Assembly: GCA_013180625.2 (NCBI GenBank)
Contig: SNVD02014823.1
Location: forward strand, 31,943-95,942
Source of the DNA: Boswellia sacra
Lineage: Eukaryota > Streptophyta > Magnoliopsida > Sapindales > Burseraceae
Direction of reading: 5' to 3'
DNA length: 64,000 nt
Made by a program: the position numbers and the translations under genes. This document shows positions 30,748-55,753 of this stretch, piece after piece. Every line of letters begins with the position of its first letter. The first letter of the stretch is position 1. The notes beneath the pieces are model-generated. The model worked only from the letters and a program-made list of their open reading frames with translations, had not been told where the DNA came from and did not search any database.

Positions 30748-31883
30748 CTCCCTTCTCTTGCCATTTAATTGTTGAAGGGCCTGTATGTTCGTCAAATTGA
30801 CTACGTGGTTATAATTAAATAAAAAAATACTTCTTTTAAAAGAAAAATTTGATACACACAAACATATATATAAAACTTTTTCTGGCTGAACATACCACGT
30901 AAACATACTGCAATTAACTATCTAAACAATGTTATTTTCTTCATTGAAATTTTCCTGGAAATTGATTATATAATATAGTGCCATTACAAATTTATTCACA
31001 AGTTGAGTGCAATTTCTATCCAACTACTTGATCTTATTCTCTTATATTATTGAAATAGATGGAGTAGGTGATTCATGTGAAACCCATTCTTGTTAGAATA
31101 AGAGGATAATAGTTACGCACTAATAAAATATGTAATTTACATTTGAATGAAAGTCAATTTCGAACTACTTCAACACAATAGAGGCAATAGCCTTTTTTTA
31201 TTTCTTGAGAAAATGGGTATGAATTTAGTTTGAATTCACGTTTGATCAACTTGCCACCTCGTATGAAAACTTTATATAATAAGGTACAAGTTGGAATCAA
31301 AGGAAATATTTTATCAAACAAAAATTAAAAGAAAAGAAAAGTACATAGTACAATAATTGAAGTTTCATGTTGAATAATTTGCTTTAATGATGGAACACGG
31401 AGTTCACAATCAATTTTAATTAAATAAGCATTTCTGATGTACCTAACTATTCAGTTAATTGCAACCGTACCGATTTCTTTAACTTTGTTCCGAGCATTCT
31501 CATCTCGACAACCACCCCTCTGTTGTTTGATTAGAAGACTTCTAATAGCTAGTTTTGGAATATATTAGTTAATTAAAGCAAGTGATACGGTCCAGTTTCT
31601 CCAATCTTGAATCCTTATAACACTATCCATTCACATTTGAACCAGGAAGTAACAAAAATTTTACTCAGAATTAATTTCGTTTCACTATATCGGTAAGTCT
31701 CCTGGCCATTTCAGTGGGTGACCTGCGACTTTCAAGCTAGCATCCGTATCAATTGTAGTCTCCTGAAGCTCAGTTATCAGAAGGACAGATCCTAATTAAC
31801 AAAAAGGAAGCAGGGATATTGTAAGGTTTCGCTTTCTTCTTCCTGAAAACATTCAATCAGGACAGCTAGGTAGCCAAGACGAG
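30748..31883 (+). promoter_or_regulatory. Upstream region and 5' leader of CRK gene 1
   Basis: It is homologous to the regions before CRK genes 2 and 3, with local deletions. A TATA-like TTTATATAATAAG lies near 31271, well upstream. The last 90 bases before the ATG (GGAAGCAGGGATATTGTAAG, then CTTTCTTCTTCC) are nearly identical in all three genes and contain a pyrimidine-rich tract. Compared with copies 2 and 3, about 110 bp near 31570 are missing, including the TGACGTCG and CCACGTGG motifs. Confidence 0.6.
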
Positions 31884-34800
31884 ATGAGATTGGCAAATTT
31901 GCTTTGTTTCCTCTCCTGTGTTATTCTAAGCATCCGTCTTTCTGCTGGCGCTATATGTTACGAAGAAACAGGAAACTTCACAGCTAACAGCACCTATCAG
32001 AAAAACCGCGACATCATCCTCTCATCTCTTGCTTCCAATGTGACTGTAAGTGACGGTTTCTACTACACTGCCACTATTGGAGAAGAGCCGGACAAAGTCT
32101 ATGCTCTTGTGAATTGCAGAGGGGATGCTTCAGCCCAACAGTGTGCTAGCTGCGTCCGTATCGCAACCCAAGATATGATAAATACGTGTCCAAACAAGAA
32201 AGAGGTTGTTGCTTGGGGACCAAATCCTCAATGCATTACTCACTATTCAAACAGCTCTTTTTTCGGAAAGATGGAGAGTGATCCTATGGCCGGAGGCGCC
32301 TCTGATGATGACATTACAACCAACATTACAGAGTTTGATCAGAAGTGGGAGAGTTTGATGAATCGCCTGCTGAAAAAAGCTTCTACTGGCGCTCCTGGGC
32401 GTAAGTTCGCAACTGGGTCAGCAAATTTGACATCATTTGTGAACATATACGCATTAATGCAGTGTACTCCTGATATTTCACCTAGTGACTGCTACGAATG
32501 TCTATATAAATCTTTGGCTTACACCCAGGGTCACTACCATGGGCAGACTACTGCTCTTATTGTGAGACCTAGCTGTATTTATATCTGGGATTCAAGTCCC
32601 TTCTATAAGGTTACTCCTTATGATTTACAACAATCTCCTGCGATTGCTCCTACCGCTCCTCGTTCGCCCTCAAATAATTCAACAACCACAGAAGGTAAAA
32701 ACAAATGTTCAACTCCATGAAAAAAACAAAATTACCCTTATGGCGAATATGAAAATTGAACGTGAATTTTGAATGATACACGTACAAGACAGTGTGGAAT
32801 AGCTTAACCTCTACCATTTCACGATATCCCAATGTGCTTTTGTGGTTTCTGCAGGCAAAGGGGACAGTGAATCTAGAACGGTTATAATCATAGTTGTTTC
32901 TACAGTCGTCTTCATAGCACTTGTTCTTGTTGCCTTCATTTATGTCATTTTAAGACGGAGGAAGTCAAAGCAGGGGATCAGAAGCAAGAGAGAAACGGAA
33001 GGTAAATTAATTATACCCATCTTTAATTCACCGTGACTATCAAATACAAGCTTGGTTTTTCTGTAGCTTTATGGCCACTATAAAGATTTAGTCGAGTTGC
33101 AAATAAAAGAAAAAAAAATTCCTCAAAGAAACAGAGAAACGATATACAGCAGTTAGGAGTTTCTCTTTTTAGGTGTGTTTTTCCTTGAATGTAAATGTTC
33201 ATTTTATATTTTATTTTATTTTTATTACTAACGGGTTAATCTATATGATAAATTCTTACTATTAGATGTTCACAAAATTGATGACACCGTGGAGTCCTTG
33301 CAATTCGACTTCAGCACAATCAGGACTGCAACAAATGAATTCTCCATTGATAATAAGCTTGGACAAGGAGGATTTGGTGCTGTTTACAAGGTCAGTAATT
33401 AATGACATTGTGAGTAAAATAATACCAATTGTTGGTCAAAATGAGTTAAATTGTAAATTTTCTTCATCCGAAGGCAATTCCACTCTGTTTGCATTCATAA
33501 TGTTTCAAACATCCGATTGCAGGGTAGGCTTCCTGATGGACGGGATGTAGCTGTGAAGAGGCTATCTAGAGATTCCGGCCAAGGAGAACTAGAATTTAAA
33601 AATGAGGTCCTCCTAGTGGCCAAACTTCAACATAGGAATTTGGTCAGGCTTCTAGGTTTCTGTTTGGAAGGAAACGAAAGGCTTCTCATATATGAATTTG
33701 TGCTTAATTCAAGCCTAGATAACTTCATATTTGGTACTGTTTTATTTCTCTTTTTAGCTTTCTTTTAATTTTCAATGTAGAGTGCATTTCTATTTATACA
33801 TGCAATTTACTCAAATAGTAAACAGTTACATAGATGAATACATGATAACAGAACGATGTTGTAACCTGTTCTGTAATTTTTACTTGACTGCTATTGGATA
33901 AGTATTTGTGGTTATGGTTTTTGTGAGTCTGCAGATGCAATCAAACGTTTATTACTAGATTGGGAAATCCGATACAAAATTATAGGGGGCATAGCTCGAG
34001 GGCTTCTTTATCTTCATCAAGATTCTCGGTTTCGTATCATTCATCGTGACCTCAAAGCAAGCAATATCCTTTTAAATGAAGATATGATTCCAAAAATTTC
34101 AGATTTTGGAATGGCAAAATTGTTTGAAATGGATCAAACTGAAGGCGATACAAGTAGAGTTGTGGGGACCTTGTAAGTATATATTACAATCAATTTATTA
34201 GACATTATACTAAGAGTATGGTTACTTATTTGCACATATAAACTTATAAGGTTTTCGTTACATCTAAGAAGTCTAACTAGTGACCTTTTCCAGTGGCTAT
34301 ATGGCTCCAGAGTACGTGAGACATGGAAACTTTTCAGTCAAGTCGGATGTTTTCAGCTTTGGTGTGTTAGTCTTGGAGATAATCAGTGGTCAAAAAAATA
34401 GTTGTTTTAATAATGGAGAAGAAGTAGAAGATCTATTAACCTATGTAAGAAGGTTTTTTTTTTTTTTTTTTATTTCAATTAAATTTTGTTTTCCCTTATA
34501 TCACAATGAAGTTGCAAAAATTAGAGAAAAAATAAAAAAAGAAATGAAAGATCCTAACGTCTTTCTTTCTCTTCGTTAATTTTTTGCAGGCATGGAGGAA
34601 CTGGAATGAAGGGACAGCTTTAAATATAGTAGATCCCACTTTAAGGGTTGGTAGCAGCAGTGAAGTTATGAGATGCATCCATATTGGGTTACTATGTGTT
34701 CAAGAAAATGCAGCAAATAGACCTACCATGGCGACAGTTGTTCTCATGCTTACTAGCAGCTCTCTTTCTATTCCAGTACCCTCTAAACCTGCATTTTTTA

Positions 34801-34913
34801 TCCACACTTATACGGAGCAGGATGATCCAGAAGTCCCTGTGCTGTATCAGTCTGAAGATAATGTTCAATTTTCACTCAATGAGGCTTCAGTCACTGAGCT
34901 AGAACCACGATGA
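31884..34913 (+). CDS. Cysteine-rich receptor-like protein kinase (CRK), gene 1
   Basis: This is a plasma-membrane receptor kinase of the DUF26/Gnk2 family, whose members act in defence and stress signalling. Seven exons can be read: 31884-32694, 32855-33001, 33266-33390, 33523-33733, 33935-34172, 34294-34444 and 34590-34913. The total is 2007 nt, 668 residues. A signal peptide covers about residues 1-23. Two DUF26 domains carry the C-x8-C-x2-C motif at Cys78/87/90 and Cys194/203/206. The membrane helix is about 279-303, followed by an Arg/Lys stop-transfer run. The kinase has the glycine loop [11 protein letters not shown] (351-361), Lys373, HRD 468-470, DFG 488-490 and APE 515-517, so it looks active. 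All introns are GT-AG. It keeps the common GFCLEG motif where genes 2 and 3 have Ser for Cys. The ligand is unknown. Confidence 0.92.
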
Positions 34914-35059
34914 TTTTTGAAAAAGAAAGTTGTGTCTTTAAGCATGTTTGCCTTGGGTGAGTTTTTATAAGAAATTATCTATAGGTTGTTTATAAATCAG
35001 ATTGAAGTCCTATTTGTCTTGAATGATAAATATTAAATCCAGTGATGGACAAATCATTA

Positions 35060-35580
35060 ACAGATAAGGGCATGGATTTGCATGACGATTGATGTGACTT
35101 CTGACTTTTTGGCATGCTCGGCCCTCTTGTGCTACGAACAAGAAAATGAAAAACTTCTCACCTATGCGTTTTTGCATAATTCAAGCCTAGATAACTTTCT
35201 AATTGGTAAGGTTGTTATCATTTTTTTTCCTTTGTATTTTTCTTTTGTTCGAAAGCAAGATTACGAAATGTGAAATCCTAGAACTCTAATTTATGTAGTT
35301 ATTTTTAGTATGTATTTGTTTGTTATGTTCAATTGTTTTTCTGGATTTGTAGATCCCATCGAGCATGTAGTGTAGGACTCGGAAAAACGTTACCCAATTA
35401 TAGGAAACATAGCTCAATGAATCTTTTATCTCCATGGAGATTACTGATAATTTATCATGATATTAAAGCTAGCAACATATTTTTAGATGCAAATATGAAT
35501 CCAAAAATTTCTGACTTTTTAATAGCAAGACTTGAAATGGATCAAACTCAAGGTGATGCTAGAAGAGTTGTGGGAACCTA
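35060..35580 (+). pseudogene. Decayed CRK tail after gene 1
   Basis: Two blocks match CRK kinase exons 4 and 5. About 35145-35203 reads ENEKLLTYAFLHNSSLDNF before a GT donor. About 35353-35580 has degenerate [20 protein letters not shown] and [14 protein letters not shown] separated by stops. The sequence is closer to a generic CRK than to the neighbouring gene, so it looks like the remains of a second gene in an ancestral two-gene unit. The same tail follows genes 2 and 3. The Athila-like element inserted in the following intron position. Confidence 0.75.
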
Positions 35581-35616
35581 GTAAGTATATAAGGTTCAAT
35601 TTTTTTTCCCTCTCCT

Positions 35617-37006
35617 TGATGAACACTTAAATATGCATGTTTAATAAGAGTTTAGTTCATCATATTGCATTAATAGTGTCATTAAATTCCTCAACTTAAG
35701 CATATTTGTAGCATTTGCATCTTTGGAATTAATTCCTCTTAATTTTGGTTTTGTTACAGGTTCGGTAAAATGGGCATAACTCTCTATTTATAGATCAGAA
35801 TGGTGCAATTCTTAATGTTTTGGAAAGCTGATTCAATTTTCTACAAGATTGCATTTCACAAGCATCATCAAATTCGGGCTCTTAGTGGACCAAAATTGGG
35901 CTTGAAGTGAACCCATCTACAGTCTCGGCCCAGTCTGACCAGGCCTCAGTATTTGGACCGTATCTCTCAAAATACGTATCCAAATTGTGCAAATCAATAT
36001 GTTCTAGAAAGCTGAGAGAAATATCTACAACTTTCATGAAGACATGTGATTAAAATTCACAACATTTCGATGTCAAAATTGATGGTCAAAGTCGGTGCCT
36101 AATGATCCCAATTGTCAAAGATATTTACAACTAATATTTGACAATTATGCCCTTGTAATTTGACAAGTTTGCCCCTGGATGTATCTATAAATAGAGGTGC
36201 CTTGTGACCCATTAGGGCATCTTGGCCTTGGCTGGAACATTTTGGCTTTGGCTAGGATCTTGTATTGTGTTTTGTGTGTTTATGTTATTAATGAATTTCC
36301 TTTTTCTTACATTTTATTTTCTTTCTATTATAATGTTCTTCTAATTTCTCTTTTGCTAAGGTGAAAGGGTGAAACCCTTGATATGAGAATAAGGATTCTC
36401 TAACCCTTAATATGTGCTTAATAATCTTAATCTTATAATGTTTATTCAATATGATTTATATTTAATTTCTTAATCAATCTTGACACCACTCGTAAAGTGG
36501 AGGTCTTGATCCATTGTCGACAATCCTTGGCACATCAAATGCTTGGATCCTTTCTAGATGATGTATGGTTCTTCCTTACCGACACGAATCTAGTTAGGAA
36601 CCTTGATTTGTTGTAGACATATGGTGATTGGCACATTGGATGCTTGAACCCATTTACAAGAAGTGGTATAAATATTGGTAATGAAACAAATATAATTCAT
36701 ATAACTAAAATGGGTTAATTATCCTTATTTGAAATATCAAGGGCGGATCCCCTAACCTTAGCCTTCATTGTTATTGTGTTAATTTCTCTTGTATTCTAAT
36801 TATTCTTATTTATTGTTTACGAACTTGTTCTTTACTCATATTTGTTGATATTATCTTGCCATCTCTTCGAATCATCCATATCACGTTTGCTTAGCTTATA
36901 ATTTGTAACGCTTAAATTTCCTTCCTCGTGGATCGACCTCGGTCTCACCGAGATTATTACTTCGACACTCCTATACTTGGGAGACAATCCTTTTTCGGAT
37001 GTGTCA
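35617..37006 (+). repeat. Left LTR of the Athila-like element
   Basis: It runs from TGATGAACACTTAAATATGC to TTTTTCGGATGTGTCA. It is the same length as the right LTR. A TATA-like CTATAAATAGAGG lies near 36185, followed by the leader. Substitutions against the right LTR include TTCGGT/TTTGGT near 35761 and GTAACG/ATAACG near 36906. Confidence 0.92.
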
Positions 37007-37012
37007 AGTTTT

Positions 37013-37030
37013 TGGCGCCGTTGCCGGGGA
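37013..37030 (+). other. Primer-binding site, tRNA-Asp type
   Basis: TGGCGCCGTTGCCGGGGA, six bases after the LTR, is the characteristic site of Athila/Tat-clade Ty3/gypsy elements. Confidence 0.88.
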
Positions 37031-37236
37031 AGGTAAAATTTGACGTACAAAATTGTAAGTATTTTCTTTTCCCATTTCTATTTTTATTACATATTTCATC
37101 TCTTCTCTCCCCATTTCTATTTTTATTTTTTTTCTTGCATGTGTTCATCTTTTCTTCCTCATTGCATTAGTTGGTAGAATTGTTAGGAGTCACTCATCTT
37201 CTTTAAAAACATGCTCAAACCCAATTGAGAACATAA

Positions 37237-39245
37237 ATGGATTGCGTGAATCTTATGAGAACTTGTGCACAATCTTGCATAGTCTTCCCTCATGATGCAA
37301 CATATTTCGACCATGAATCGGATTTCATTCAATTCTTACCTCACTTTCATGGCCTAGATGTTGAAAACCCATTTTTGCACTTGAGAGAATTTAAAGAGTT
37401 TTGCAACACTTATAGTGACCTAAATTGTAGCATAAACATCTTTCGATTAAAGCTTTTTCCTTTTTCTCTAAAAGATAAAGCTAAGACATGGCTACAAAAT
37501 CTTAGGTCAAGATCCATTAGCTCATGGGATGAAATGCAACAACAATTTCTTAAAAAATTCTTTCCTCCCTATAGAACAAATTCTCTCAAAGTGCAAATCA
37601 TCAATTTCACTCAAAACCAAGGAGAGACCTTTTACCAATGTTGGGATAGGTATAAAGCATTGCTCAATACTTGTCCTCACCATGGTTTGGAAACATGGAG
37701 ACTAGTTTTAATTTTCTATGCACAACACATCAAGCTAGGCAAATGGTAGAATTAATGTGTAATGGACAATTTGAAAACAAAGACCCTGATGAAGCTATGG
37801 ATTACCTAGACTTACTAGCGAAAAATGCTCAAAATTGGAACAATGTTGGCACCTATGAGGTACCAAGAACATCTAGTAGAGGCATTTATAACATTAGGGA
37901 GAATCATGATCATCATGCTAAATTTGCATCCCTAGCTAGAAAAGTAGAGGATTTAGAAATGTGGTCTATGCAAGAAATTGTCTGTCACACTTGTAATTCT
38001 AGTGATCATCCTACGGATGATTGTCTAATTGTGTCTACCTTTAGGAAAAGTCTCCATGACCAAACCAATGTTTTAAACACTTTCCAAAGGTCAAATCCTA
38101 ATCCTTACTCACAAAAATTTGGATGGAAAAATCACTTGAATTTTGATTGGAGGAATGATAATCATGCACAATCTTACCAACCTCCCTTTCAATCATGTCA
38201 AAATTTTCAAAAAGCTCATGATCATGCATCTTATAAGGATCTTGAAGAAACATGGAATTCATTCATTGTAAAGCAAGAGGCTTTTAATAGTCAAGTTGCT
38301 CAAACTATGGCAAACTTGAATGATGCTCTTGAAAAACTTGCATTTGCATTTAGTACTCATGAGAAAGGTGTGTTTCCATCTCAACTCGAGCCAAACCTCA
38401 TCAATCCACATGTGAGTAATCCAAGTAGCCAACATCTTCTCGAAGATTCGGTAAGTGCTCTTCTCGAAGATTCGGTAAGTGCTCTTCATGATGGTAAGGT
38501 TGATCAAGAACATATTCCTAACCCTTATGAGACAGATGATGAATCAATCCTAAAGGGTAAGGAAGAGGTTAATCAACTTACACCTAACAAAGAAAAGACT
38601 GAATCCTCACTTATGCATCATGCAAAGGAATTTAACCAAAATTTTGATATTAATGAATTTTTCGAGCATGATGAAAATGAGGAAGCTAATAGGACAAAAA
38701 CTAACGTGGAAGACTATATCCAAAATGAGAAATTTTCAACTCCTTCGGAAATCAGGTTACTTAGTTCTTTTGAACCAAGCATGCAACTAGTGCCCATTGC
38801 TTCTAAAGAATTTTCATTGCTTGATTTTGTACAGGTGAAAGAGATTAAGAGTTGGGAGCCATGGTTCAAAAAAAAGGAGGAACAAACATCCACACTCAAT
38901 AATGCATGCTTTAAGGACAAACAAACTCAGATAGTGGTAATCTCCTTAATTCTCACAAATAAAGGAAAAAGAAAGGTACCACCTCAATGGCATATTTTTG
39001 ACCGTGGTAAATCACTTTTGAAGAGATCCCTCTTTTTGCATTTCTTTATAATGATTGATCAAATTTTATCCATCTATGCCATATTTTCATTTTTATTTTT
39101 ATTCTTGATTTTTGCTATCATTTATAGTTTGTTTTTATTTTATTTTGTGTGCGTTTATTTTAGTTGTGTGTTTTTATTTTATTTCCCGGTCAAGTGGCGG
39201 ATACGGTACTCCGTGGCTTTTAAAGTTGGTTTTTCAGTTCCCTAA
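37237..39245 (+). pseudogene. gag of the Athila-like element, frameshifted
   Basis: The first frame (37237-37749) carries the retrotransposon gag core: RLKLFPFSLKDKAKTWLQNL, SSWDEMQQQFLKKFFPP and CPHHGLETW. The same protein continues in a second frame (from about 37715) with QARQMVELMCNGQFENKDPDEA, so a one-base shift lies near 37715-37735. A CxxC-x4-H-type knuckle remnant (CHTCNSSDHPTDDC) lies near 37985-38025. Two 24-bp tandem units at about 38439-38487 duplicate LEDSVSAL. The hydrophobic C-terminal tail after about 39040 is probably non-coding AT-rich sequence read in frame. The frameshift makes this copy unlikely to supply Gag. Confidence 0.82.
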
Positions 39246-39299
39246 AAACTGTTGCTCACCTTACATCCATTTTCTTTTCTTCTCTCTAATTTTCTTCAC

Positions 39300-39848
39300 A
39301 TGGATACCATTCTCTCAAAATTGCACAAACATTTTCCCTCTCTTCCTCAAAATGATTTGCTTAAAATTTATAAAGCTCGTGCAGAAAGACTAAGGTTGTT
39401 GATGCGTAAGGGTATTCCTGCTGATTTAAGATGGTTAATTGAAGCCAAGGTTCGATTCTCTTGTGAGTTTTCAGATAATCTTGTTTCCCATATGCCAGGT
39501 TTGGGAAAAAGCTCTTATGCCAAAAAGCGAAGAGCGAAAAGGTTACAAGTTTGTCCCAGATGTGCAAGATGGACTTGTAACCAGCGTTGCCGCTCATTGG
39601 GATATTTGTCTAACAATCGAGAGGATAAACTACAGTTCATCAAGAATGGACTGAGTAAGGAGTCTTTGGATGATATCCGAACGACTCTTGAGACGCATTC
39701 TTGTGGACTTGTGCAGCGTGAAATTTTTAATTTGTGGACACAATTCCGAGATGAGCAGGAACGCTATAGTCTTGGGAATCTGACTCAAAACGACCCTGTT
39801 TGCCAGTTTATAAGAAAACTGGATGGGAAGCATATCCCCAACTCATAG
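39300..39848 (+). CDS. ORF resembling a plant flexivirus cysteine-rich nucleic-acid-binding protein
   Basis: This is an uninterrupted 182-codon frame starting MDTILSKLHKHF (an upstream in-frame ATG at 39252 would add 16 residues of leader-like sequence). An N-terminal helical, Arg-rich part is followed by SSYAKKRRAKRLQVCPRCAR and then CNQRC. That is a basic arginine/lysine run directly before a four-cysteine cluster (CxxC-x4-CxxxC). A downstream REDKLQFIKNGL segment follows. This order is the hallmark of the small 3'-proximal nucleic-acid-binding proteins of flexiviruses (Alpha- and Betaflexiviridae), some of which suppress RNA silencing. It occupies the place where pol would be. Similarity is judged from motifs only. 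It could instead be an element-specific accessory protein. Confidence 0.5.
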   Translation: MDTILSKLHKHFPSLPQNDLLKIYKARAERLRLLMRKGIPADLRWLIEAKVRFSCEFSDNLVSHMPGLGKSSYAKKRRAKRLQVCPRCARWTCNQRCRSLGYLSNNREDKLQFIKNGLSKESLDDIRTTLETHSCGLVQREIFNLWTQFRDEQERYSLGNLTQNDPVCQFIRKLDGKHIPNS

Positions 39849-40165
39849 AAGGTGTTTAAGCCGTTTCTGGACGTAAAACCAGAGGAAGATGTGAGCCACA
39901 GTCACAACTACCTGTACATATGCATGCGTGCCATCATTTTTGAATTTTAATACCTCATTGCTGTCATTTTTGAATTTGTATCTTTTGTTTGACTTATGGT
40001 GTCTTATTTCATCATCTTTTGACCTTTTTTTGCATTATTGTCAACTTTTTCAACAAACAATCGAGCTACCTAGATAGATATCATCATTAACATACCTTTT
40101 TGCACTCCATAAATACCACATGTCTTGGTTCTCTTCTTCACACATAGTTAGAGAGTCACATAGAC
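39849..40165 (+). other. Spacer between the two foreign ORFs
   Basis: This is about 317 bp of T-rich sequence with no ORF. The last part (CTCCATAAATACCACATGTC near 40105, then a CT-rich run) looks like the promoter end or 5' leader of a plant gene and may have come along with the LOG copy. Confidence 0.4.
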
Positions 40166-40789
40166 ATGGAGGGAACTTCAAAACGTCGAATCCAAAGGAT
40201 ATGTGTATTCTGTGGATCTCGACCAGGTAAAAGTGAAGAGTTCGTAGAAGTAGCGAATTATCTTGGTAGGCTACTGGCTGAAAGAAAGATTCATGTGGTT
40301 TATGGGGGAGGTAGCCTCGGGTTAATGGGTTGTGTGTCAACAGCTGCACATGTAGGAGGTAGTCAAGTTTTAGGAGTTATTCCTAAAGCTTTGGCTGTAG
40401 AAAGCATTGTTGGAAAAACGGTTGGGAAGGAGTTACAGGTCTCCTCTATGCATGAACGCATGGCACATATGCTCATCAATTCAGATGCCTTTATTGCTTT
40501 ACCAGGTGGCTTTGGTACTTTTGAAGAAATTTTTCAAATTGCCTCTTGGGCCCAACTGAATCTCCATAAAAAACCCATAGGCTTTGTTGAATGTTAACAA
40601 TTTCTTTGATCCTTTAATAAGTTTTGTTGATGCAGCTGTAGAACAAAATTTTATCCCACATTGGGCGAGACAGATCCTTATGACAAATTACAAGAAGTTG
40701 AGTATGAACCTGACCCAGCTAGTACTCAAATTAATTGGGCAGGAGGGCAAAACAAAAAGTGCAAATTGGATCTGAATCTCCGTTTGTAA
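40166..40789 (+). pseudogene. Intronless LONELY GUY (LOG) cytokinin-activating enzyme copy, frameshifted
   Basis: LOG releases active cytokinin bases from cytokinin riboside 5'-monophosphates in the cytosol. The first frame (143 residues to a stop at 40597) has the family motifs CVFCGSRPGK, VVYGGGSLGLMG, VIPKAL, the MHER arginine and PGGFGTFEE, which correspond to the nucleotide-binding and catalytic sites. Then a one-base shift (near 40588) moves the protein to another frame (NVNNFFDPLISFVDAAVEQN), and a second shift (near 40680) restores the original frame to a stop at 40787-40789. The total of 624 nt is normal LOG length. Plant LOG genes contain several introns, so an intronless copy inside an LTR element points to capture through RNA. 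The restored-frame tail ends LDLNLRL, an EAR-like motif. Confidence 0.85.
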
Positions 40790-42124
40790 TTTTTTTCTTC
40801 TTGTCTTTTATTTTATTTTATTTTATTTTTAGCATGTTATTTTATGAGTCTTTCAGGTCATCTCTCTTGAATAACAGAAGCTTCAGGTAATGTCTCCTAT
40901 ACTTTATCTCTCTACATTTAAACATTGAGGACAATGTTTCATTTGGTTGGGGGGGAAGGATAGTAGACATAAGTGTGTCTTGAAATTTTATTTTTTCTTG
41001 CAAAAAAAAAAAAAGCGAGTTAGTAATTAGATTCAGAGTGCGGTGTAAGGAGTTCAAATCCTCTTGAGACGCATTCTGGGTCAGGAATGGCAGAGTAGGG
41101 AGGACCAGTTTGAACTCTTGAAACCCATTCTAACCAATTTGTCATTTTATTCTTGCATTTTTGAAGACTTATTTGATATTATTTAGTCTTGATTTTTGAA
41201 TTTTATAACAAGGAGGTCTTATTCATTTCACTTTGAATCATTCAAATCTATGAACTCTCACAACCTTATCATTTAATAAATTGTGTGCTTATGTGCTCAT
41301 TAAGCAAGTATCTATGAATCTTTCTTCACACACACACACACCTTGATGTATGATTGTGGGTGGCGAAATGAAATACTGCAATATTTGAGTTCTTTTGTTT
41401 TGTTTAGGATAACAACAAAAGGAAGGGGAAAGTTTTAAAAAAAATGAAAAAAAATGAAAAATGAAAGAAAAAAAAAGAAAAAAGAGAGAAGCAATGGTGG
41501 ATAAGTTTGGTCTTGTAGCCTCCTTAATTCGAGCAATTAAGCCCGAGGGGTGCCTCAACACCTAATACCCTAAGACCAACTGGTTTGGGAGCTATTGGCC
41601 CAAAGCTCGCTACATGGATTAAGGAGAAAGCTTAATGGGATTGAACATTGCACTATCCACAAGTTTCTAAGCAAAAATAAAGCATCGGCAACCCGAGTCG
41701 TTAAGCTCGTAGGGGTGTCTTAACACCTAATGCCTTAAGGCCAACTGGTCTGGGAGTCATTAGCCTAAGGCTCGCTACATGGGTTAAAGATGCATTCTTT
41801 CAAAAAAAAAAAAAAAATATATAAATAAAATGAATGAAATGCCCCCTACCTAAGGTTGTTAGCCTTAACAAATATTAGAACCGATATGGCTTCTTTCTAA
41901 TAAGCCCCATAGTCATGTGTCAACTGAGCACAAAAAGAAGGTTTGTTGATATCTTGACTGAAGGGTACATGAGTCATTTAAAAAAAAAAGGTTGAGAGTT
42001 TGTTTATTTGGATAAAATCAAGGAGAGTGCAATAATGACCACCTTGGATGTAAAATTCTATAAATCACTTCTAAATAATAACGCTTTAATTGCTAGGGAC
42101 TAGCAATAAGCTAGTTGGGGGGTG
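40790..42124 (+). other. 3' non-coding region of the Athila-like element with duplicated block and purine tract
   Basis: ACATTGAGGACAATGTTTCA followed by GGTTGGGGGGG (near 40921-40960) is a typical pre-3' landmark of large plant gypsy elements. Two diverged copies of a roughly 100-bp block (about 41530-41633 and 41692-41789) share ACACCTAAT, CCAACTGGT and GCTCGCTACATGG. The terminal tract GTTGGGGGGTG directly precedes the right LTR and serves as the plus-strand primer. Confidence 0.65.
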
Positions 42125-43514
42125 TGATGAACACTTAAATATGCATGTTTAATAAGAGTTTAGTTCATCATATTGCATTAATAGTGTCATTAAATTCCTC
42201 AACTTAAGCATATTTGTAGCATTTGCATCTTTGGAATTAATTTCTCTTAATTTTGGTTTTGTTACAGGTTTGGTAAAATGGGCATAACTCTCTATTTATA
42301 GATCAGAATGGTGCAATTCTTAATGTTTTGGAAAGCTGATTCAATTTTCTACAAGATTGCATTTCACAAGCATAATCAAATTCGGGCTCTTAGTGGACCA
42401 AAATTGGGCTTGAAGTGAACCCATCTACAGTCTCGGCCTAGTCTGACCAGGCCTCAGTATTTGGACCGTATCTCTCAAAATACGTATCCAAATTGTGCAA
42501 ATCAATATGTTCTAGAAAGCTGAGAGAAATATCTACAACTTTCATGAAGACATGTGATTAAAATTCACAACATTTCGATGTCAAAATTGATGGTCAAAGT
42601 CGGTGCCTAATGATCCCAATTGTCAAAGATATTTACAACTAATATTTGACAATTATGCCCTTGTAATTTGACAAGTTTGCCCCTGGATGTATCTATAAAT
42701 AGAGGTGCCTTGTGACCCATTAGGGCATCTTGGCCTTGGCTGGAACATTTTGGCTTTGGCTAGGATCTTGTATTGTGTTTTGTGTGTTTATGTTATTAAT
42801 GAATTTCCTTTTTCTTGCATTTTATTTTCTTTCTATTATAATGTTCTTCTAATTTCTCTTTTGCTAAGGTGAAAGGGTGAAACCCTTGATATGAGAATAA
42901 GGATTCTCTAACCCTTAATATGTGCTTAATAATCTTAATCTTATAATGTTTATTCAATATGATTTATATTTAATTTCTTAATCAATCTTGACACCACTCG
43001 TAAAGTGGAGGTCTTGATCCATTGTCGACAATCCTTGGCACATCAAATGCTTGGATCCTTTCTAGATGATGTATGGTTCTTCCTTACCGACACGAATCTA
43101 GTTAGGAACCTTGATTTGTTGTAGACATATGGTGATTGGCACATTGGATGCTTGAACCCATTTACAAGAAGTGGTATAAATATTGGTAATGAAACAAATA
43201 TAATTCATATAACTAAAATGGGTTAATTATCCTTATTTGAAATATCAAGGGCGGATCCCCTAACCTTAGCCTTCATTGTTATTGTGTTAATTTCTCTTGT
43301 ATTCTAATTATTCTTATTTATTGTTTACGAACTTGTTCTTTACTCATATTTGTTGATATTATCTTGCCATCTCTTCGAATCATCCATATCACGTTTGCTT
43401 AGCTTATAATTTATAACGCTTAAATTCCCTTCCTCGTGGATCGACCTCGGTCTCACCGAGATTATTACTTCGACACTCCTATACTTGGGAGACAATCCTT
43501 TTTCGGATGTGTCA
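42125..43514 (+). repeat. Right LTR of the Athila-like element
   Basis: It is the same length as the left LTR and differs at only a handful of sites. It ends GGATGTGTCA, followed by the CTCCT duplication and the interrupted CRK tail. Confidence 0.92.
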
Positions 43515-43519
43515 CTCCT

Positions 43520-44170: not shown

Positions 44171-46062
44171 TTAATATTCTGACTTCTATACGATAATGAC
44201 CTAATGTGATGTGGCTGACAATGATTGACGTGTAATTTTTGGTTTTACATTACAATATTTTTCTGGCTTTTTTAGTCACAACCGACGTCTTTATTCACAC
44301 TCAAATTTCTTTTCACTCACTAAAAGTCCGGCTTGGAACTCAAAAGTCTGGTGTCAACATGTTTCATAACACCGTATATTTTATTAATCTTTGACTTATA
44401 AATTTATTTAATATTATAAATTATTAATGCTTATGATATATATATTATAAAATTAAAAATTTTATAATATTAAAAATTTTATATTAAAAAATAAAATTAA
44501 TTTATATAATAATAAATTAGGATAAGTTTGATTATTTTTTATACTAACAATTTTGTATATTCTAAAAATAATTTTAATGGATATAAATATATAAAATTCA
44601 ATAAATTATATATAAATAGATTAAACAATTAATTAAATTATATGAATTAAATATAATATTATTATAATACATGAGTAATATATTTAATAATCATATTAAA
44701 TCTGTGTTTTATGTCTTGATATAACTAATATAACGAATTAATACAAATATGAATTACTCTTATACTCAAAAGTGACCAGGAGGTTTCCTTCGAGACCGAG
44801 AAAATTCACTAAAAAAGTAACTAATGTGTAGAAGCACAGATTTTTACAAAATAATTTAGTATATGAAAGCTTTGAATTCACCGAAGTCAAGTGTCATGTG
44901 GGTGACATAATATGTCGTCACCTTCTTCTTTCGTCATTTAAATTTAGGTGGGTTTGTATTTTCGTCAAATTGACAGCATGGTTATAATTAAAAAAAAAAA
45001 CTTCTTTTAAAAAAACTAATAAGTATAAAACTAACTTTTATTGGCTGAGCATACTACATAAACATACTGAAATTAATGTTACAACTAATTTTATTCAAAT
45101 TATACTAAAATTAAATTAAATTAGTTCATATTTAAAAATTATTTTTATAAAAATTTGTTATTTATCAGTATAATACAATCTTATACTATATTAAGATAAG
45201 ACAATACTAACTTTAGTTCAACCCCAACTCCAATCACAATCTCCAAAATCTGAAACGGGCCTATTGCTCAAGCTCACTCCGGGGTCGCGCGGGCCATTGG
45301 CTGTTGTGATGCACTGAAGTTTTTATGAGGGAGCTTTAAAGCGGCCAGGTGGTGGAACAGTGGAATAATTAATTGAAGTTCATGTGGAATAATTGCTTTA
45401 ATGATGGATCGCGCGGTTCACATTTCCTTTTGTCCTTTTTGCTTTGCTTATTCTAAAGAACGGTCATACTTTGTCCTGTCGCGGACCCCTCAACTTGTCG
45501 CCCTTCCTCCGTTGATTGATTAGAAGACTACTAATAGCTAGTGTGGAATATATTATTAGCCAATGGAGAGTCTTAGAAGTATTCGTGCACTGCTGACGTC
45601 GTACAAAAAACTAATGGCATCCTATTGATTTGCTGCATGACCACGTGGTGTAGGGGATGGACCAGGACTGTCTCAAGTCATTAAAGTAGTGGTCCACTTT
45701 CTCCACTGAAAAAAAAGGGGTAAATATATTAAGCATTGTACCAAACCTTCAATCCTGATAATGGTTCGTGATGAGACCAACAACACCATGCATTCACATT
45801 TGACGAGGAAGTAATAAAAAGTTTCCCCAGAATTAATCTCATTTCACAATATCGGAAAGTCTCCTGGCCATTTCAGTGCCTGACCTGCAACTTTTGAGGT
45901 AGCATGCGTATCTCCTGAAGCTGGATCAAGAAAGATCCTAATTCTTATCGAAAAGGTATTCCTGACGCTTTGAATTAACGTAAAGGAAGCAGGGATATTG
46001 TAAGGTTTCGCTTTCTTCTTCCTGAAAACATTCAATCAGGATAGCTAGGTAGCCAACAAGAG
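44171..46062 (+). promoter_or_regulatory. Upstream region and 5' leader of CRK gene 2
   Basis: It is homologous to 49615-52821. Near the gene it contains TGACGTC (45594-45600, a TGA/bZIP-type motif) and a perfect G-box CCACGTGG (45641-45648), both conserved at the same spacing before gene 3. AT-rich filler occupies 44390-44760. The 5' leader with its CTTTCTTCTTCC tract is nearly identical to that of genes 1 and 3. Relative to gene 3, about 1.3 kb near 45080 is absent. Confidence 0.6.
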
Positions 46063-49000
46063 ATGAGATTGGCAAATTTGCTTTGTTTCCTCTCCTGTGT
46101 TCTTCTAAGCATCCGTCTTTCTGCTGGCGCTCTATGTTACGAAGAAACAGGAAACTTCACGGCTAACAGCACCTATCAGAAAAACCGCGACATCATCCTC
46201 TCATCTCTTGCTTCCAATGTGACTGTAAGCGACGGTTTCTACTACACTGCCACTATTGGAGAAGAGCCGGACAAAGTCTATGCTCTTGTGAATTGCAGAG
46301 GGGATGCTTCTGCCCAAGAGTGTGCTAGCTGCGTCCGTATCGCAACCCAAGATATGATAAATACGTGTCCAAACAATAAAGAAGTTGTTGCTTGGGGACC
46401 AAATCCTCAATGCATTACTCACTATTCAAACAGCTCTTTTTTTGGAAAGATGGAGAGTGATCCTATGGCCGGAGGTGCAACTGTTGAGAACATTACAACG
46501 GACATTACAGAGTTTGATCCGAAGTTTCTGAGTTTCATGACTCGCTTGCTGAAAAAAGCTTCTACTGGCGCTCCTGGGCGTAAGTTCGCAACTGGGTCAG
46601 CAAATTTGACATCAGTGAACATGTACGCATTAATGCAGTGTACTCCTGATATTTCACCTAGTGACTGCTACGAATGTCTATATAAATCTTTGGCTTACAC
46701 CCAGGGTCACTACCATGGGCAGACTACTGCTCTTATTATGAGACCTAGCTGTATTTATATCTGGGATTCAAGTCCCTTCTATAAGGTTACTCCTTATGAT
46801 TTACAACAATCTCCTGCGATTCCTCCTACCGCTCCTCGTTGGCCCTCAAATAATTCGACAACCAGAGAAGGTAAAATCAAATGTTCAACTTCATTTAAAG
46901 AAAAAGAAATTACCCTTATTGCGAATGTGAAAATGGAACGTTAATTTTGAATGATACACTTACAAGAGAGTGTGGAATAGCTTAACCTCTACCATTTCAC
47001 GATATCCCAATGTGCTTTTGTGGTTTCTGCAGGCAAAGGGGACAGCGAATCTAGAACGGCTATAATCGTAGTTGTTTCTACAGTAGTCTTCATAGCACTT
47101 GTTCTTGTTGCCTACATTTATGTCATTTTAAGACGGAGGAAGTCAAAGCAGGGGATCAGAAGCAAGCGAGAAACGGAAGGTAAATTAATTATACCCATCT
47201 TTAGTTCACCATGACTATCAAATATAAGCTTGGTTTTTCTGTAGCTTTATGGCCACTATAAAGATTTAGTCGAGTTGCAAATAATAGAAAAAAAATCCTC
47301 ACAGAAACAGAGAAACGTTATACAAGGGTTAGGAGTTTCTCTTTTTAGGTGTGTTTTTCCTTGAATGTAAATGTTTTCTTTACATTTTATTTTAATTTTA
47401 TTACTAACGGGTTGATCTATATGATAAATTCTTACAATTAGATGTTCATAAATTTGATGACACCGTGGAGTCCTTGCAATTCGACTTCAGCACAATCAGA
47501 ACTGCAACAAATGAATTCTCCATTGATAATAAGCTTGGACAAGGAGGATTTGGTGCTGTTTACAAGGTAAGTAATTAATGACATCGTGTGTAAAATAATA
47601 CCAATTGTTGGTCAAAAAGAGTTAAATTGTAAATTTTCTTCCTTCGGAGGCAATTCCATTCTGTTTGCATTCCTCATGTTTCAAACATCTGATTGCAGGG
47701 TAGGCTTCCTGATGGACGGGATATAGCTGTGAAGAGGCTATCTAGAGATTCCGGACAAGGAGAACGAGAATTTAAAAATGAGGTCCTCCTAGCAGCCAAA
47801 CTTCAGCATCGGAATTTGGTTAGGCTTCTAGGTTTCAGTTTGGAAGGAAACGAAAGGCTTCTCATATATGAATTTGTGCTTAATTCAAGCCTAGATAACT
47901 TCATATTTGGTATGGTTTTATTTCTCTTTTTAGCTTTCTTTTAATTTTCAATGTAGAGTGCATGTCTATTTATACATGCAATTTACTCGAATAGTAAAGA
48001 GTTGCATAGATGACTACATGATAACAGAACCATGTTGTAACTTGTTCTGTAATTTTTACTTGACTGCTATCGGATAATGTATTTATGTTATGGCTTTTCT
48101 GAGTCTGCAGATGCAATCAAACGTTTATTACTAGATTGGGAAATCCGATACAAAATTATAGGGGGCATAGCTCGAGGGCTTCTTTATCTTCATCAAGATT
48201 CTCGGTTTCGTATCATTCATCGTGACCTCAAAGCAAGCAATATACTTTTAAATGAAGATATGATTCCAAAAATTTCAGATTTTGGAATGGCAAAGTTGTT
48301 TCAAATGGATCAAAGTGAAGGCGATACAAGTAGAGTTGTGGGTACCTTGTGAGTATATATTAGAACCAATTTCTTAGATATTAAACTTAGAGTATGGTTA
48401 CTTATTTGCATATATAAACTGATGGGTTGGCTTTCATTACATGTAAGGAATCTAAGTAGTAACTTTTTCCAGTGGCTATATGGCTCCAGAGTACTTGAGA
48501 CATGGAAACTTCTCAGTCAAGTCGGATGTTTTCAGCTTTGGTGTGTTAGTCTTGGAAATAATCAGTGGTCAAAAAAATAGTCGTTTTAATAATGGAGAAG
48601 AAGTAGAAGATCTATTAACCTATGTAAGGAGTTTTTTTTTTTTTTTAATCAATTAAATTTTGTTTTCCCTTATATCACAATGAATTTGCAGAAAATTAGA
48701 GAAAAAAAAAGAAATGAAAGAGCCTAACGTCTTTCTTTCTCCTTGTTAAATTTTTGCAGGCATGGAGAAACTGGAATAAAGGGACAGCTTTAAATATATT
48801 AGATCCCGCTTTAAGGGTTGGTAGCAGTAGTGAAGTTATGAGATGCATCCATATTGGTTTACTATGTGTTCAAGAAAATGCAGCAAATAGACCTACCATG
48901 GCTACAGTTGTCCTCATGCTTACTAGCAGCTCTCTTTCTATTCCAGTACCCTCTAAACCTGCATTTTTTATCCACACTTATACGGAGCAGGATGATCCAG

Positions 49001-49083
49001 AAGTCCTTGTGCTGTATGAGTCTGATGATAATGTTCAATTTTCACTCAATGAGGCTTCAGTCACTGAGCTAGAACCACGATGA
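46063..49083 (+). CDS. Cysteine-rich receptor-like protein kinase (CRK), gene 2
   Basis: This is the tandem paralogue of gene 1 with the same seven-exon structure: 46063-46870, 47033-47179, 47442-47566, 47699-47909, 48111-48348, 48473-48623 and 48760-49083. The total is 2004 nt, 667 residues. It has a signal peptide, two DUF26 domains (motifs [13 protein letters not shown] and [13 protein letters not shown]), one transmembrane helix and a complete kinase (AVKRL lysine, [14 protein letters not shown]). Domain 2 is one residue shorter than in gene 1 (Phe missing in the LTSVNMY region), and the linker between the DUF26 domains differs ([20 protein letters not shown]). Intron 5 uses a GTGAGT donor. 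The reading frame is intact, so it is probably functional. Confidence 0.92.
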
Positions 49084-49249
49084 TTTTTGAAAAAGAAAGT
49101 TGTGTCTTTAAGCATCTTTGCCTTGGTGAGTTTTTATAAGAAATTCTCTATTGGTTGTTTATAAATCAGATTGAAGTCCTACTAGTCTTGAATGATAAAT
49201 ATTAAATCCAGTGATGGACACACCGTTGACAGATAAAGGCATGCATTTG

Positions 49250-49612
49250 CATGATGATTGATGTGACTTCTGATTCATTTTTGGCACGCTCGGCCCTGTT
49301 GTGCTATGAACAATGAAATGAAAAACTTCTCACCGTTTTTTGCATAATTCAAGCCTAGATAACTTCCTAATTGGTAAGGTTGCTATCATTTTTTTTCTTT
49401 GTATTTTGCTTTTGTTCGAAAGCAAGATTTTGAGATGTTAATTTTTTAGTTGCCCATAGGCTTACGAAATGTGAAAGCCTAGAACTCTAATTTATGAAGT
49501 TATTTTTAGTGAGTATTTATTTGTTATGTTTAGTTGTTTTTCTGAATTTGTGGATCCCTTCAAGCATGTAGTGTAGGATTTACACGTTACCCAATTACAG
49601 GAAACATAGAAA
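49250..49612 (+). pseudogene. Decayed CRK tail after gene 2, truncated
   Basis: It matches the tail after gene 1: exon 4 remnant near 49310-49375 (HNSSLDNFLIG-like, in broken frame) and the start of exon 5 near 49550-49610. It ends abruptly at about 49612, where the upstream region of gene 3 begins. This is the second duplication junction. Confidence 0.65.
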
Positions 49613-52600
49613 TTCTGGCTTTCATATGATAATGACCTAATGTGATGTGGTTGACAATGACTTGATGTGTAATTTTTGGCTCTACAGTACAATATTGTGA
49701 TGGCTTTTTACAAGTCACAGCCGCCCGAGGTGTGTGTTCACACCCAAATTTCTTTTCACTCACTACGAAGTCCGATTTGAAACTCAAAAGTCAGGGTGTC
49801 AATGTGTTGCACGATATGATATTTCTACAATATTAGTAAATATGTCAAATTGACGTTAAGTATTTGACAGGATAACTCATTTAACATTAATAAATAAATA
49901 TATTTTATTGATTTTTCACTTATAAACATATTTAATAATATAATTTATATAATAATAAATTAAGATAAGTTTAATTATTTTTTTACACTAACTATTTTAT
50001 ATATTTTAATAATAATTTTAATGAATATAAATATATAAAATCTAATAAATCATGTATAAATAAATTAAATAATTTATTAAATTATGAATTAAATATAATA
50101 TTATTATAATACGTGAATTGTATATTTAATGATCTTATCGTTTTATGTTTTATATTTTGATAAAATAATTAAATTGATTGAAATACAAATGCGAATTGCT
50201 GTCCGTACTCAAGAGTTACCAGGAGGTTGCCTTAAAGACCGGGAAAATTCACTAAAAAGGTGACTAAAGGTAGAAGCACTGAGGTAGATTTTTACAAAGT
50301 AATTTAGTACATGAAAGCGTTTAATTCACTGAAGTCAAGTGTCATGCGGGTGTCGTCACTTTTCTTCTTTTGTCATTTAATTTTAGGTGGGTTTGTATTT
50401 TCGTCAAATTGGCAGCATGGTTATAATTAGAAAAAAATACTTCTTTTAAAAAAACTAATATGTATAAAACTAACTTTTATTGGCTGAGCATACTACATAA
50501 ACATACTGAAATTAATGTTACAACTATCTAAACAATTTTATTTTCTTTATTGAAATTTTCACATAAATTTATTATATAATAATATAGTACTATTACAAAT
50601 TTATTCACTAAGTTTGAGTGCAATTTCTATCCAACCACTTGATCTTATTCTCTTGTATTATCCAAAGTGATGGAATAGGTGATTCATGTGAAACCCGTTG
50701 TTATTAGCATAAGAGGATAATGGTCAAGCACCAATAAAATCTGAAAGTTTACCATTGAATGAAAGTCAATTTCAAACTACTTTAATACAATAAAAGCAGC
50801 ATCCTTCTTTCTTTTTCCTTTTCTCAGATGAGAAAATGCGAATCAATTTAGTTTGAGGAAGAGTCAAATTTGATGAACTTTATATAATAAGCTAAAAGTT
50901 GGAATCATAGGAAATATTTTATCAAATAAACATTACAAGAAAAAAAATAGTACATTCCGTTTGGGAGTTAGGACTAAGTGGGGATTGGACAAGATTTTGG
51001 GATTAATTGCCTAAACCTTTATTTGAGGCATTCCAAGTGATTGTGATTGAGACTAATCATAATCCCAATAGTACCAAATCTTTGGGACAAAAAGTCCCAA
51101 GCTATACCGCGGGATCGTTTGTCCTAAGCTTGAGCTATTATATAATAATAAACATTAAATAAATAATTATTTACTATTTCTCAATTGAATAATAAAAATA
51201 ACAAATAAATATTAATTTATGATTTTATTTAAATTAATACATATTATAAAAATGAGATAATTTTAAAATAAATAATAATTATATATTTTACAATAAAATT
51301 ATATGTAGTAATAATAAACAATTGTATATATTATTAATAATTATTACAATACTTAATTTAAATATTAGTAAAACTAATATAATAAATATTATATTATTAG
51401 ACAAAAATTAATATAATAATATATAACTCATTTATGAATGATGACATTAAATTATTATAATATTAAATGTTATATAAAAATAAATAAATAAAATTTATTG
51501 ATGTAATAATAAATTAATTATAAAAATTAGTGCAATAAAATATTATTAAGAAAATATAAATATAATAGTATAATATATAAAAATTCTTATAACATACAAT
51601 ATAATATACCAAAAATTACTACATTTTAATAAACTACAACATTTAATTACATCTAATCAGGAATTAATATTGTTCATTAATTATAAAAATACGTAATAAC
51701 AATATAAAATAGCCCAAATATATATTTAAAAATTATATTAACAATTAATTTCTAATACAAAAAAATTTCACATTATTATTTTTTTAAAAAATAGCATGTA
51801 TTTAAATATTTTTAATCTAAATATTAAATTAATTTTCATTCAAATTAAACTAAAATTAAATTTAATTATTTTATATTTAAAAATTATTTTTATAAAAATT
51901 TGTTTTTTACTAATAAAATACAATCTCATACTATACTGGGTACAGAACAATACTAACTTTAGTTCAACGCCAACTCCAATCACAATCTCCAAAATCTGAA
52001 ACGGGCCTATTGCTCAAGCTTACTCTGGGGTCGCGCGGGCCATGGGCAGTTGTGATTCACTGAAGTTTTGATAAGGGAGCTTTAAAGCGGCCAGATGGTG
52101 GAAGGGTCAACAGTGGAATAAATAATTGAAGTTCATGTTGAATAATTTGCTTGAGTGATGGAACACGCGGTTCACATTTCCTTTTGTCCTTTTGCTTTGC
52201 TTATTCTAAAGAACGGTCATAGTTTGTCCTGTCACGGACCCCTCAACTTGTCGCCCTTCCTCCATCGATTGATTAATTACAAGACTACTAACAGCTAGTT
52301 TGGAATATATTATTAGTCAATGGAGAGAGTCTTAGAAATATTCGTGCACTGCTGACGTCGTACAACAAACTGATGGCATCCTGTTGGCTTGCTGCATGAC
52401 CACGTGGTGTAGGGGATGGACCAAAACTCTCTCAAGTCATTGGAGTTGTGGTCCACTTTGTCCACCGGAAAAAAAGGGTAAGAAGATTAAACATAATACC
52501 AAACCTTCAATCCTGATAATGGTTCGTGATGAGACCAACAACACTATGCATTCACTTTTGAAAGAGGAAGTAATAAGAAGTTTACCCAGAATTAATCTCA

Positions 52601-52821
52601 TTTCACAATATCGGAAAGTCTCCTGGCCATTTCAGTGCGTGACCTGCAACTTTTGCGGTAGCATGCGTATCTCCTGAAGGTGGATCAAGAAAGATCCTAA
52701 TTCTTTTCGAAAAGGTATTCCTGACGCTTTGAATTAACAAAAAGGAAGCAGGGATATTGTAAGGTTTCGCTTTCTTCTTCCTGAAAACATTCAATCAGGA
52801 TAGCTAGGGAGCCAACAAGAG
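49613..52821 (+). promoter_or_regulatory. Upstream region and 5' leader of CRK gene 3
   Basis: This is the longest of the three upstream regions. It shares blocks with both gene 1 (50520-50950) and gene 2 (51830-52821). It carries TGACGTCG (52353-52360) and the G-box CCACGTGG (52400-52407). A stretch at about 50955-51830 has no counterpart upstream of gene 1 or gene 2. It starts CCGTTTGGGAGTTAGGACTA, includes a GGGACAAAAAGTCCC palindrome near 51083, then becomes extremely AT-rich; it may be an old insertion. Confidence 0.55.

Positions 52822-55753
<2,932 letters not shown>

What the first reader, a model, noticed from the sequence alone, without database searches (positions are those of the whole stretch)
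39300..39848. Flexivirus-type nucleic-acid-binding ORF inside a plant LTR retrotransposon
Seen: an intact 182-codon frame with an arginine/lysine run directly followed by a CxxC-x4-CxxxC cluster and a DKLQFIKNG segment, sitting in place of pol in an Athila-like element. Known: flexiviruses carry a small 3'-proximal protein with this basic-plus-zinc-cluster layout, some with silencing-suppressor activity. Inference: the element acquired the ORF from a plant RNA virus, possibly by template switching, and kept it open while gag acquired a frameshift. A protein able to counter host silencing would be a plausible benefit to a retrotransposon.
Basis: partly seen in the sequence, partly recalled or inferred. 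Interest (0 to 1): 0.92.

Follow-up and report, generated by a model that had tools for sequence, protein, structure and literature searches.

The report
Virus-type accessory gene in plant retrotransposons
A very abundant family of plant jumping genes carries, next to its usual genes, a small conserved gene related to silencing-suppressor proteins of plant RNA viruses, together with a copy of a plant hormone-activating enzyme gene, and the pattern of changes suggests that both were kept working while the elements were active.

Summary
Window 39300-39848 is an intact 182-codon frame with a basic run and a C-x2-C-x4-C-x3-C cluster, above the curated Pfam cut-offs for Viral_NABP (E 1.2e-7) and Carla_C4 (1.1e-6). 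It is not a one-off capture. The window element (35617-43514, LTRs 99.5% identical, CTCCT target duplication) is a pol-less copy. In 14 of 20 other copies fetched from this genome, and in a related contig, the gene lies just downstream of integrase. An intronless LOG (cytokinin-activating enzyme) gene follows it in 20 of 20 fetched copies and is broken in the window. 150 copies of the viral-type gene were scored in this genome at 96% identity or more. Between two families dN/dS is 0.21 for this gene and 0.36 for LOG, open copies only. LOG in Athila-like elements is in print; my searches found no report of the viral-type gene. Homology to flexivirus proteins rests on a core of about 65-85 residues; fold comparison was inconclusive; direction of transfer is untested. 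Most likely function, by inference: nucleic-acid binding that counters host silencing or regulates expression.

The parts
35617..43514 (+). complete LTR retrotransposon insertion, 7898 bp, pol-less copy of an Athila-like lineage
   Evidence: LTR pair, TG..CA ends and 5-bp target duplication; no match in the window to the RNase H end/integrase frame of L001, and only about 280 bp between the gag-like frame and the accessory gene
35617..37006 (+). 5' LTR (1390 bp)
   Evidence: 99.5% identical to 42125-43514, 7 differences in 1390
42125..43514 (+). 3' LTR (1390 bp)
35612..35616 (.). target-site duplication CTCCT (second copy 43515-43519)
37013..37029 (+). primer-binding-site-like sequence TGGCGCCGTTGCCGGGG
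   Evidence: read directly; complementarity to tRNA-Asp is recalled, not tested
37237..39020 (+). gag, in two overlapping frames in this copy (frameshifted)
   Evidence: PF03732 E 4e-20 in the first piece; pieces in frame at that junction in 6 of 6 other pol-less copies
39185..39215 (+). conserved non-coding block of 31 nt upstream of the accessory gene
   Evidence: in 8 of 8 rows from two families plus L001, with one C/T site and one extra base in L001
39300..39848 (+). accessory gene: flexivirus-type nucleic-acid-binding protein (NABP-like), 182 aa, intact
   Evidence: Pfam Viral_NABP 1.2e-7 and Carla_C4 1.1e-6; 339 related proteins at E<=10
39522..39542 (+). basic run KKRRAKR (residues 75-81)
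   Evidence: K75, R77, R78, A79 and K80 at 90% or more in both the 38- and the 121-row alignment, K76 in the latter only, R81 in neither
39552..39590 (+). cysteine cluster C-x2-C-x4-C-x3-C (residues 85-97)
   Evidence: each of the four cysteines at 90% or more
39846..39914 (+). conserved block beginning at the stop codon, three predicted hairpins
   Evidence: 96% mean column identity in 15 rows, 10 of them distinct; 99.2% of cells paired, one double change, 96 of 500 shuffles as good
40166..40786 (+). intronless LOG gene (cytokinin riboside 5'-monophosphate phosphoribohydrolase type), open to 40597, rest out of frame or interrupted
   Evidence: PF03641 E 2e-26; nearest solved structure At2g37210 E 6e-45; broken C-terminal part
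42113..42124 (+). polypurine-tract-like AGTTGGGGGGTG before the 3' LTR
   Evidence: read directly

Best explanation
The frame is a standing accessory gene of an Athila-like Ty3/gypsy retrotransposon lineage found in several eudicot orders. It lies directly 3' of integrase and is followed, in nearly all copies seen, by a captured LOG gene. Shown: anatomy, amplification in this genome, purifying selection, and profile-level similarity of its core to flexivirus nucleic-acid-binding proteins. Inferred: an ancestral element took the gene from a flexivirus-like RNA long ago. The protein binds RNA or DNA through its basic run and zinc-type cluster, and helps the element by weakening small-RNA silencing or by acting as a nuclear regulator, as carlavirus relatives do. 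The window copy is a recent pol-less derivative that would have to be mobilised by relatives with intact pol and near-identical LTRs.
For: Pfam hits above cut-off for the window protein; at E<=1e-3, 35 of 38 aligned members hit Viral_NABP and 33 of 38 Carla_C4; three of three second-family proteins tested pass both cut-offs. The core 36-99 alone hits Carla_C4 at 1.5e-7, while residues 1-59 and 100-182 hit nothing better than E 0.15. Integrase-NABP order in L001, in 14 of 20 copies and in 8 of 8 LOG-chosen loci. 150 of 150 scored genome copies at 96% or more. dN/dS 0.21 between families and 0.18-0.22 against L001 by NG86. Viral relatives include reported silencing suppressors and a transcription factor (PMC12172455, PMC3689765; passages). 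In the first Foldseek search 21 of the top 22 viral hits are flexivirus proteins (19 named as nucleic-acid-binding, RNA-binding or silencing suppressor, one '15kDa protein', one 'HP') and one is unnamed, at E 0.03-1.5 (virus families recalled).
Against: No direct evidence of function. The second, better model gave only two flexivirus hits, first of 18 but at E 0.45 and 1.2, and no useful PDB match. Cysteine spacing differs from the carlavirus C-x2-C-x9-C-x4-C quoted in PMC3689765. Several relatives fall below a curated cut-off: L001 for Carla_C4; P0076 and P0119 for Viral_NABP, P0074 for Carla_C4; P0092 shows neither at E 0.01. No viral sequence could be fetched for a tree. Only 4 of 8 LOG-chosen copies have an open NABP, and within that family dN/dS is 0.37 (NG86, 6 pairs) to 0.61 (YN00, 4 pairs) on very few changes.
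Confidence: 0.55

Rival explanations
1. The gene moved the other way: a plant retrotransposon (or a plant gene shared by both) is the source, and flexiviruses acquired it.
For: The retrotransposon family is large and conserved, 56-77% identity in the 120 listed hits; nothing tested sets the direction.
Against: The flexivirus hits come from carla-, viti-, tricho-, prune-, allexi- and mandarivirus names (genera partly recalled), a wide viral spread, whereas the retroelement proteins look like one group with shared N- and C-terminal extensions.
Confidence: 0.2
2. The protein is a retroelement-internal helper, such as an RNA chaperone, packaging or nuclear-import factor, not an anti-silencing protein.
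For: Basic run plus zinc-type cluster; conserved non-coding blocks flank the gene; pol-less elements keep it and share the 3' half with pol-bearing ones.
Against: Gag already holds a CCHC-type knuckle, CHTCNSSDHPTDDC (read; motif recalled); viral relatives are reported as suppressors or a transcription factor.
Confidence: 0.2
3. The viral match is convergent: an unrelated zinc-binding protein with a basic run.
For: Short core; fold not confirmed; reversed control reached E 4e-4 to an unrelated model; second cysteine pair spaced differently; some relatives below a cut-off.
Against: Two separately curated viral models hit the window protein above cut-off and at E<=1e-3 in 35 and 33 of 38 related members, which are not independent; 0 of 5 controls hit them.
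Confidence: 0.12

Closest known systems
Flexivirus nucleic-acid-binding / cysteine-rich proteins (Pfam Viral_NABP PF05515, Carla_C4 PF01623)
   Same: Core of about 65-85 residues with basic run followed by a CxxC zinc-type cluster; above curated cut-offs
   Different: Host is a retrotransposon; extra N- and C-terminal parts without a match; C-x2-C-x4-C-x3-C instead of C-x2-C-x9-C-x4-C in potato virus H; fold not confirmed
Athila-like Ty3/gypsy elements with extra 3' ORFs, including LOG-bearing ones (Steinbauerova et al. 2011, abstract recalled; YgdH/LOG domain in Citrus and Populus elements, PMC9289625 section 12 read)
   Same: Ty3/gypsy element, extra gene 3' of pol, captured LOG
   Different: Carries a flexivirus-type gene between integrase and LOG, which the section read does not mention
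Orchid Gypsy elements with an AlkB-type RNA demethylase (PMC9289625, abstract and section 12 read)
   Same: Plant LTR retrotransposon with an added RNA-acting gene proposed to counter host surveillance
   Different: Different gene; found only in two Phalaenopsis genomes in that screen
Plant LOG cytokinin-activating enzymes (At2g37210 structure 2a33)
   Same: 51-54% identity for the five sequences of this genome compared; PGGxGTxxE motif (recalled as the LOG signature) in 28 of 29 open copies
   Different: Intronless, borne by retrotransposons in many copies

Membership tests
Flexivirus nucleic-acid-binding protein family | match to curated models above gathering score | tested here: met
   window protein, (32.4 vs 23 bits; 28.9 vs 20.9); three second-family proteins; some relatives fall below one cut-off
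Flexivirus nucleic-acid-binding protein family | basic motif followed by a zinc-finger-like cysteine motif | tested here: met
   KKRRAKR then C85-x2-C88-x4-C93-x3-C97; conserved; zinc binding itself not tested
Flexivirus nucleic-acid-binding protein family | carlavirus-type cysteine spacing C-x2-C-x9-C-x4-C (potato virus H) | tested here: not met
   spacing quoted in PMC3689765 against C-x2-C-x4-C-x3-C; other genera not compared
Flexivirus nucleic-acid-binding protein family | same fold | tested here: inconclusive
   models of pTM 0.30 and 0.40; Foldseek E 0.03 or worse, TM about 0.2
Flexivirus nucleic-acid-binding protein family | lies at the 3' end of a plus-strand RNA virus genome | tested here: not met
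   lies inside LTR retrotransposons
Flexivirus nucleic-acid-binding protein family | nucleic-acid binding and silencing suppression | not testable with these tools
   needs protein and plant assays
LTR retrotransposon, Ty3/gypsy, Athila-like | LTRs with TG..CA ends, target duplication | tested here: met
LTR retrotransposon, Ty3/gypsy, Athila-like | gag and integrase-bearing pol in relatives | tested here: met
   PF03732, rve and Integrase_H2C2 in L001, L001-like pol frame in 14 of 20 copies, in pieces in most
LTR retrotransposon, Ty3/gypsy, Athila-like | reverse-transcriptase phylogeny within Athila rather than Tat | not tested
   no reference set at hand; 'Athila-like' is recalled from primer site, 3' extra ORFs and LOG reports
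LOG enzymes | Lysine_decarbox domain and catalytic motif | tested here: met
   the window copy itself is broken
LOG enzymes | cytokinin nucleotide phosphoribohydrolase activity | not testable with these tools
   enzyme assay needed

The most novel reading that the evidence does not exclude
A retrotransposon lineage of eudicots carries a two-gene host-manipulation module: a virus-derived protein that blunts small-RNA silencing or reprograms nuclear transcription, and a cytokinin-activating enzyme. Together they would make element-bearing meristem cells proliferate, or tolerate the element, so that more copies reach the germ line.
Probability: 0.22. Interest if true: 0.93.

Novelty: new variant of a known kind. 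Interest (0 to 1): 0.78.

Why it matters
Whether plant retrotransposons fight back against host silencing with dedicated proteins is an open question with few examples (my recollection of the field). Here a gene resembling viral silencing suppressors is kept under selection in a highly amplified lineage, beside a hormone-activating enzyme, so the idea can be tested with ordinary transient assays. It also points to gene traffic between RNA viruses and retrotransposons, and it warns that some annotated LOG or 'hypothetical' plant genes may be retrotransposon genes.

Tried and rejected
Rejected: a one-off capture into this copy; a chance frame (dN/dS); the gene standing in for pol. The in-frame stretch after the NABP stop was considered as a readthrough extension; its changes between families are mostly amino-acid changing (my reading), so an RNA or DNA element seems likelier.

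Led nowhere: viral-contig searches for relatives and for the two flanking blocks; a profile search meant to reach viral proteins, which returned 796 proteins of which only the best 120 are listed, and those look like retroelement relatives; PDB sequence and fold searches; Rfam, only sub-threshold matches; paper searches for the Pfam names and for virus or captured genes in LTR elements, whose listings showed no report of this gene in retrotransposons. Those seven searches are the only basis for 'not seen in print'; the library lacks most subscription journals.

A first LOG between-family dN/dS (0.59) was wrong because equal-length sequences were not aligned; one search replaces it (0.36). Within-family-1 NABP ratios (0.25) are biased low because those copies were chosen by protein similarity. 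YN00 gave values for part of the pairs only. L003 and L010 hold the same copy (C516), so counts over loci include it twice. The 20 fetched copies were picked by me from the 150 scored rows for contig room and varied frame length, not at random.

Full report
The thing itself. Window 39300-39848 encodes 182 residues from ATG to TAG. Two curated Pfam models of plant-virus proteins match above their cut-offs: Viral_NABP, 32.4 bits, residues 35-120, and Carla_C4, 28.9 bits, residues 58-92. The core 36-99 alone reaches 1.5e-7 with Carla_C4, while residues 1-59 and 100-182 match nothing better than E 0.15 and 0.21. Of five controls submitted (one reversed, four of nine shuffles) none hits these models, though the reversed one hits an unrelated model at 4e-4. 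Of 38 aligned relatives, 35 hit Viral_NABP and 33 Carla_C4 at E<=1e-3; some relatives fall below a curated cut-off.

The element. LTRs 35617-37006 and 42125-43514 differ at 7 of 1390 sites (K2P 0.0051), ends are TG..CA, and CTCCT is duplicated on both sides. At assumed rates of 2.5e-9 to 1.3e-8 per site and year that is roughly 0.2-1 million years (rates recalled). Gag is present but frameshifted. The RNase H end/integrase frame of L001 finds no match in the window, and there is no room for pol between gag and the gene. A LOG gene without introns follows at 40166 and is broken after about 143 codons.

Where the gene normally sits. A 3330-base contig binned in a bacterial MAG (L001, in my reading plant contamination) holds an integrase frame (rve 2.4e-16, Integrase_H2C2 1.4e-12) followed by the same 182-residue gene, without LOG in the remaining kilobase. 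The window's own genome (638.6 Mb) gave 150 scored matches at 96% identity or more; 13,747 first-look candidates were mostly not scored. 19 of the 150, the window included, are identical at protein level, and by my count 26 of 150 carry one stop. I fetched 20 of these 150 with 10 kb each: 20 of 20 have LTR sequence and LOG downstream, 14 of 20 have L001-like pol upstream (in pieces in most; I did not look for a copy with all genes intact), and 6 of 20 lack pol. Twelve more short stretches also have LOG after the gene, 12 of 12. A search with a LOG protein scored 150 near full-length LOG copies (14,387 candidates). The eight whose DNA was returned, the best-scoring ones and one subfamily, all have an integrase end, then a 182-residue relative of the gene at 76-79% identity, then LOG; 4 of the 8 relatives are open. 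So pol-NABP-LOG is the order in two families of this genome; gag upstream was examined in the first family only.

Distribution. The first protein search found 339 relatives at E 10 or better (120 listed, 56-77% identity), with named hosts Populus, Xanthoceras, Rhamnella, Acer and Orobanche; a second, shorter profile query found 796 (120 listed; the two sets overlap), adding the names Striga and Parasponia. One Rhamnella model (P0076) joins an integrase-like N-terminal part (my reading; Pfam saw only the NABP part) to the gene. Another (P0092) joins the gene to LOG: the database lists PF01623 for it, while my own scan at E 0.01 showed only LOG. Three of 18 LOG contigs of 1500 bases or more have exactly the length of one of the 53 NABP contigs (8723, 4511, 2128); a jitter null gives 0.31 expected and P 0.0024 (contigs not used).

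Selection. Window against L001: dN 0.16-0.19 and dS 0.50-1.11 by four methods, ratio 0.15-0.36. Family 1 against family 2: 0.21 by NG86, 0.22 by YN00; against L001 0.22 and 0.18 by NG86. Within family 2 the ratio is 0.37 (NG86, 6 pairs) to 0.61 (YN00, 4 pairs) on very few changes; within family 1 it is 0.25 but biased by the choice of copies. LOG: 0.25 within family 1, 0.36 between families; 28 of 29 open LOG copies keep PGGxGTxxE. Closed copies were left out of these rates (6 of 50 NABP, 5 of 34 full-length LOG matches). My reading: selection acts while elements are active; many copies decay afterwards.

Exchange between elements. Pol-bearing copies have a gag N-terminal part 51-78% identical to the window's by piece, pol-less copies 90-93%, yet both share LTRs at about 93-99% over their main part and the NABP gene at 95.6-100%. 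This suggests that the 3' half is exchanged between two gag lineages, by recombination or template switching (inference).

How it most likely works. Viral relatives are described as silencing suppressors (sweet potato chlorotic fleck virus, citrus yellow vein clearing virus; preliminary for potato virus H) and one, of chrysanthemum virus B, as a weak suppressor and a transcription factor that induces hyperplasia (PMC12172455 and PMC3689765, passages only). I infer that the retroelement protein binds nucleic acid and counters small-RNA control or regulates transcription. LOG would activate cytokinin locally. No step of this function is shown here.

Structure. AlphaFold models reached mean pLDDT 63 and 74, pTM 0.30 and 0.40. 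With the better model two flexivirus proteins remain at the top of 18 hits, E 0.45 and 1.2. Nothing useful in PDB. I count the fold comparison as inconclusive.

What is known. LOG-type (YgdH) domains in Citrus and Populus Gypsy elements are in print (PMC9289625, section 12 read, citing Steinbauerova et al. 2011, whose abstract I only recall). A term search of a 2026 review of gene capture by plant transposons found no LONELY GUY, cytokinin or Athila (PMC13317346), and one of a 2020 review of additional ORFs found no LONELY GUY (PMC7264820, passages). Seven library searches showed no report of a flexivirus-type gene in LTR retrotransposons.

Noticed in passing
window 39846-39914; L001 2345-2413; L042-L049: 69-nt block beginning at the NABP stop is far more conserved (96% mean column identity, 15 rows) than the gene itself and folds into three hairpins with one double change that keeps the pair; not significant against shuffles (96 of 500). 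Candidate cis RNA element.
   Followed up: partly
window 39185-39215: 31-nt non-coding block upstream of the gene is nearly identical across two families and L001 (8 of 8 rows); function unknown.
   Followed up: partly
L010-L029: Two gag lineages, one with and one without pol, share LTR-NABP-LOG nearly identically: apparent modular exchange of the 3' half.
   Followed up: partly
(P0247 and others): 59 of the 120 listed LOG hits are annotated proteins of Reevesia pubescens whose tags name 20 chromosomes (hand count): possibly retrotransposon LOG copies annotated as host genes.
   Followed up: no
In a small tree the 18 retro-LOG or LOG-hit sequences separate from the two Arabidopsis LOGs (split support 1.0), compatible with one old capture; no known host LOG of the same species was included.
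   Followed up: partly
L001 (DAIEQH010000041.1): A contig binned in a Candidatus Nomurabacteria MAG looks like plant retrotransposon contamination.
   Followed up: no
window 31619-35412, 45782-49609, 51820-55837: Element sits in an array of duplicated receptor-kinase-like genes with cysteine-rich domains, copies 89-93% identical (naming recalled).
   Followed up: no
window 37582-37688 minus: Sub-threshold Rfam match to snoR71 inside gag (29.8 of 40 bits, E 0.005); probably chance.
   Followed up: no
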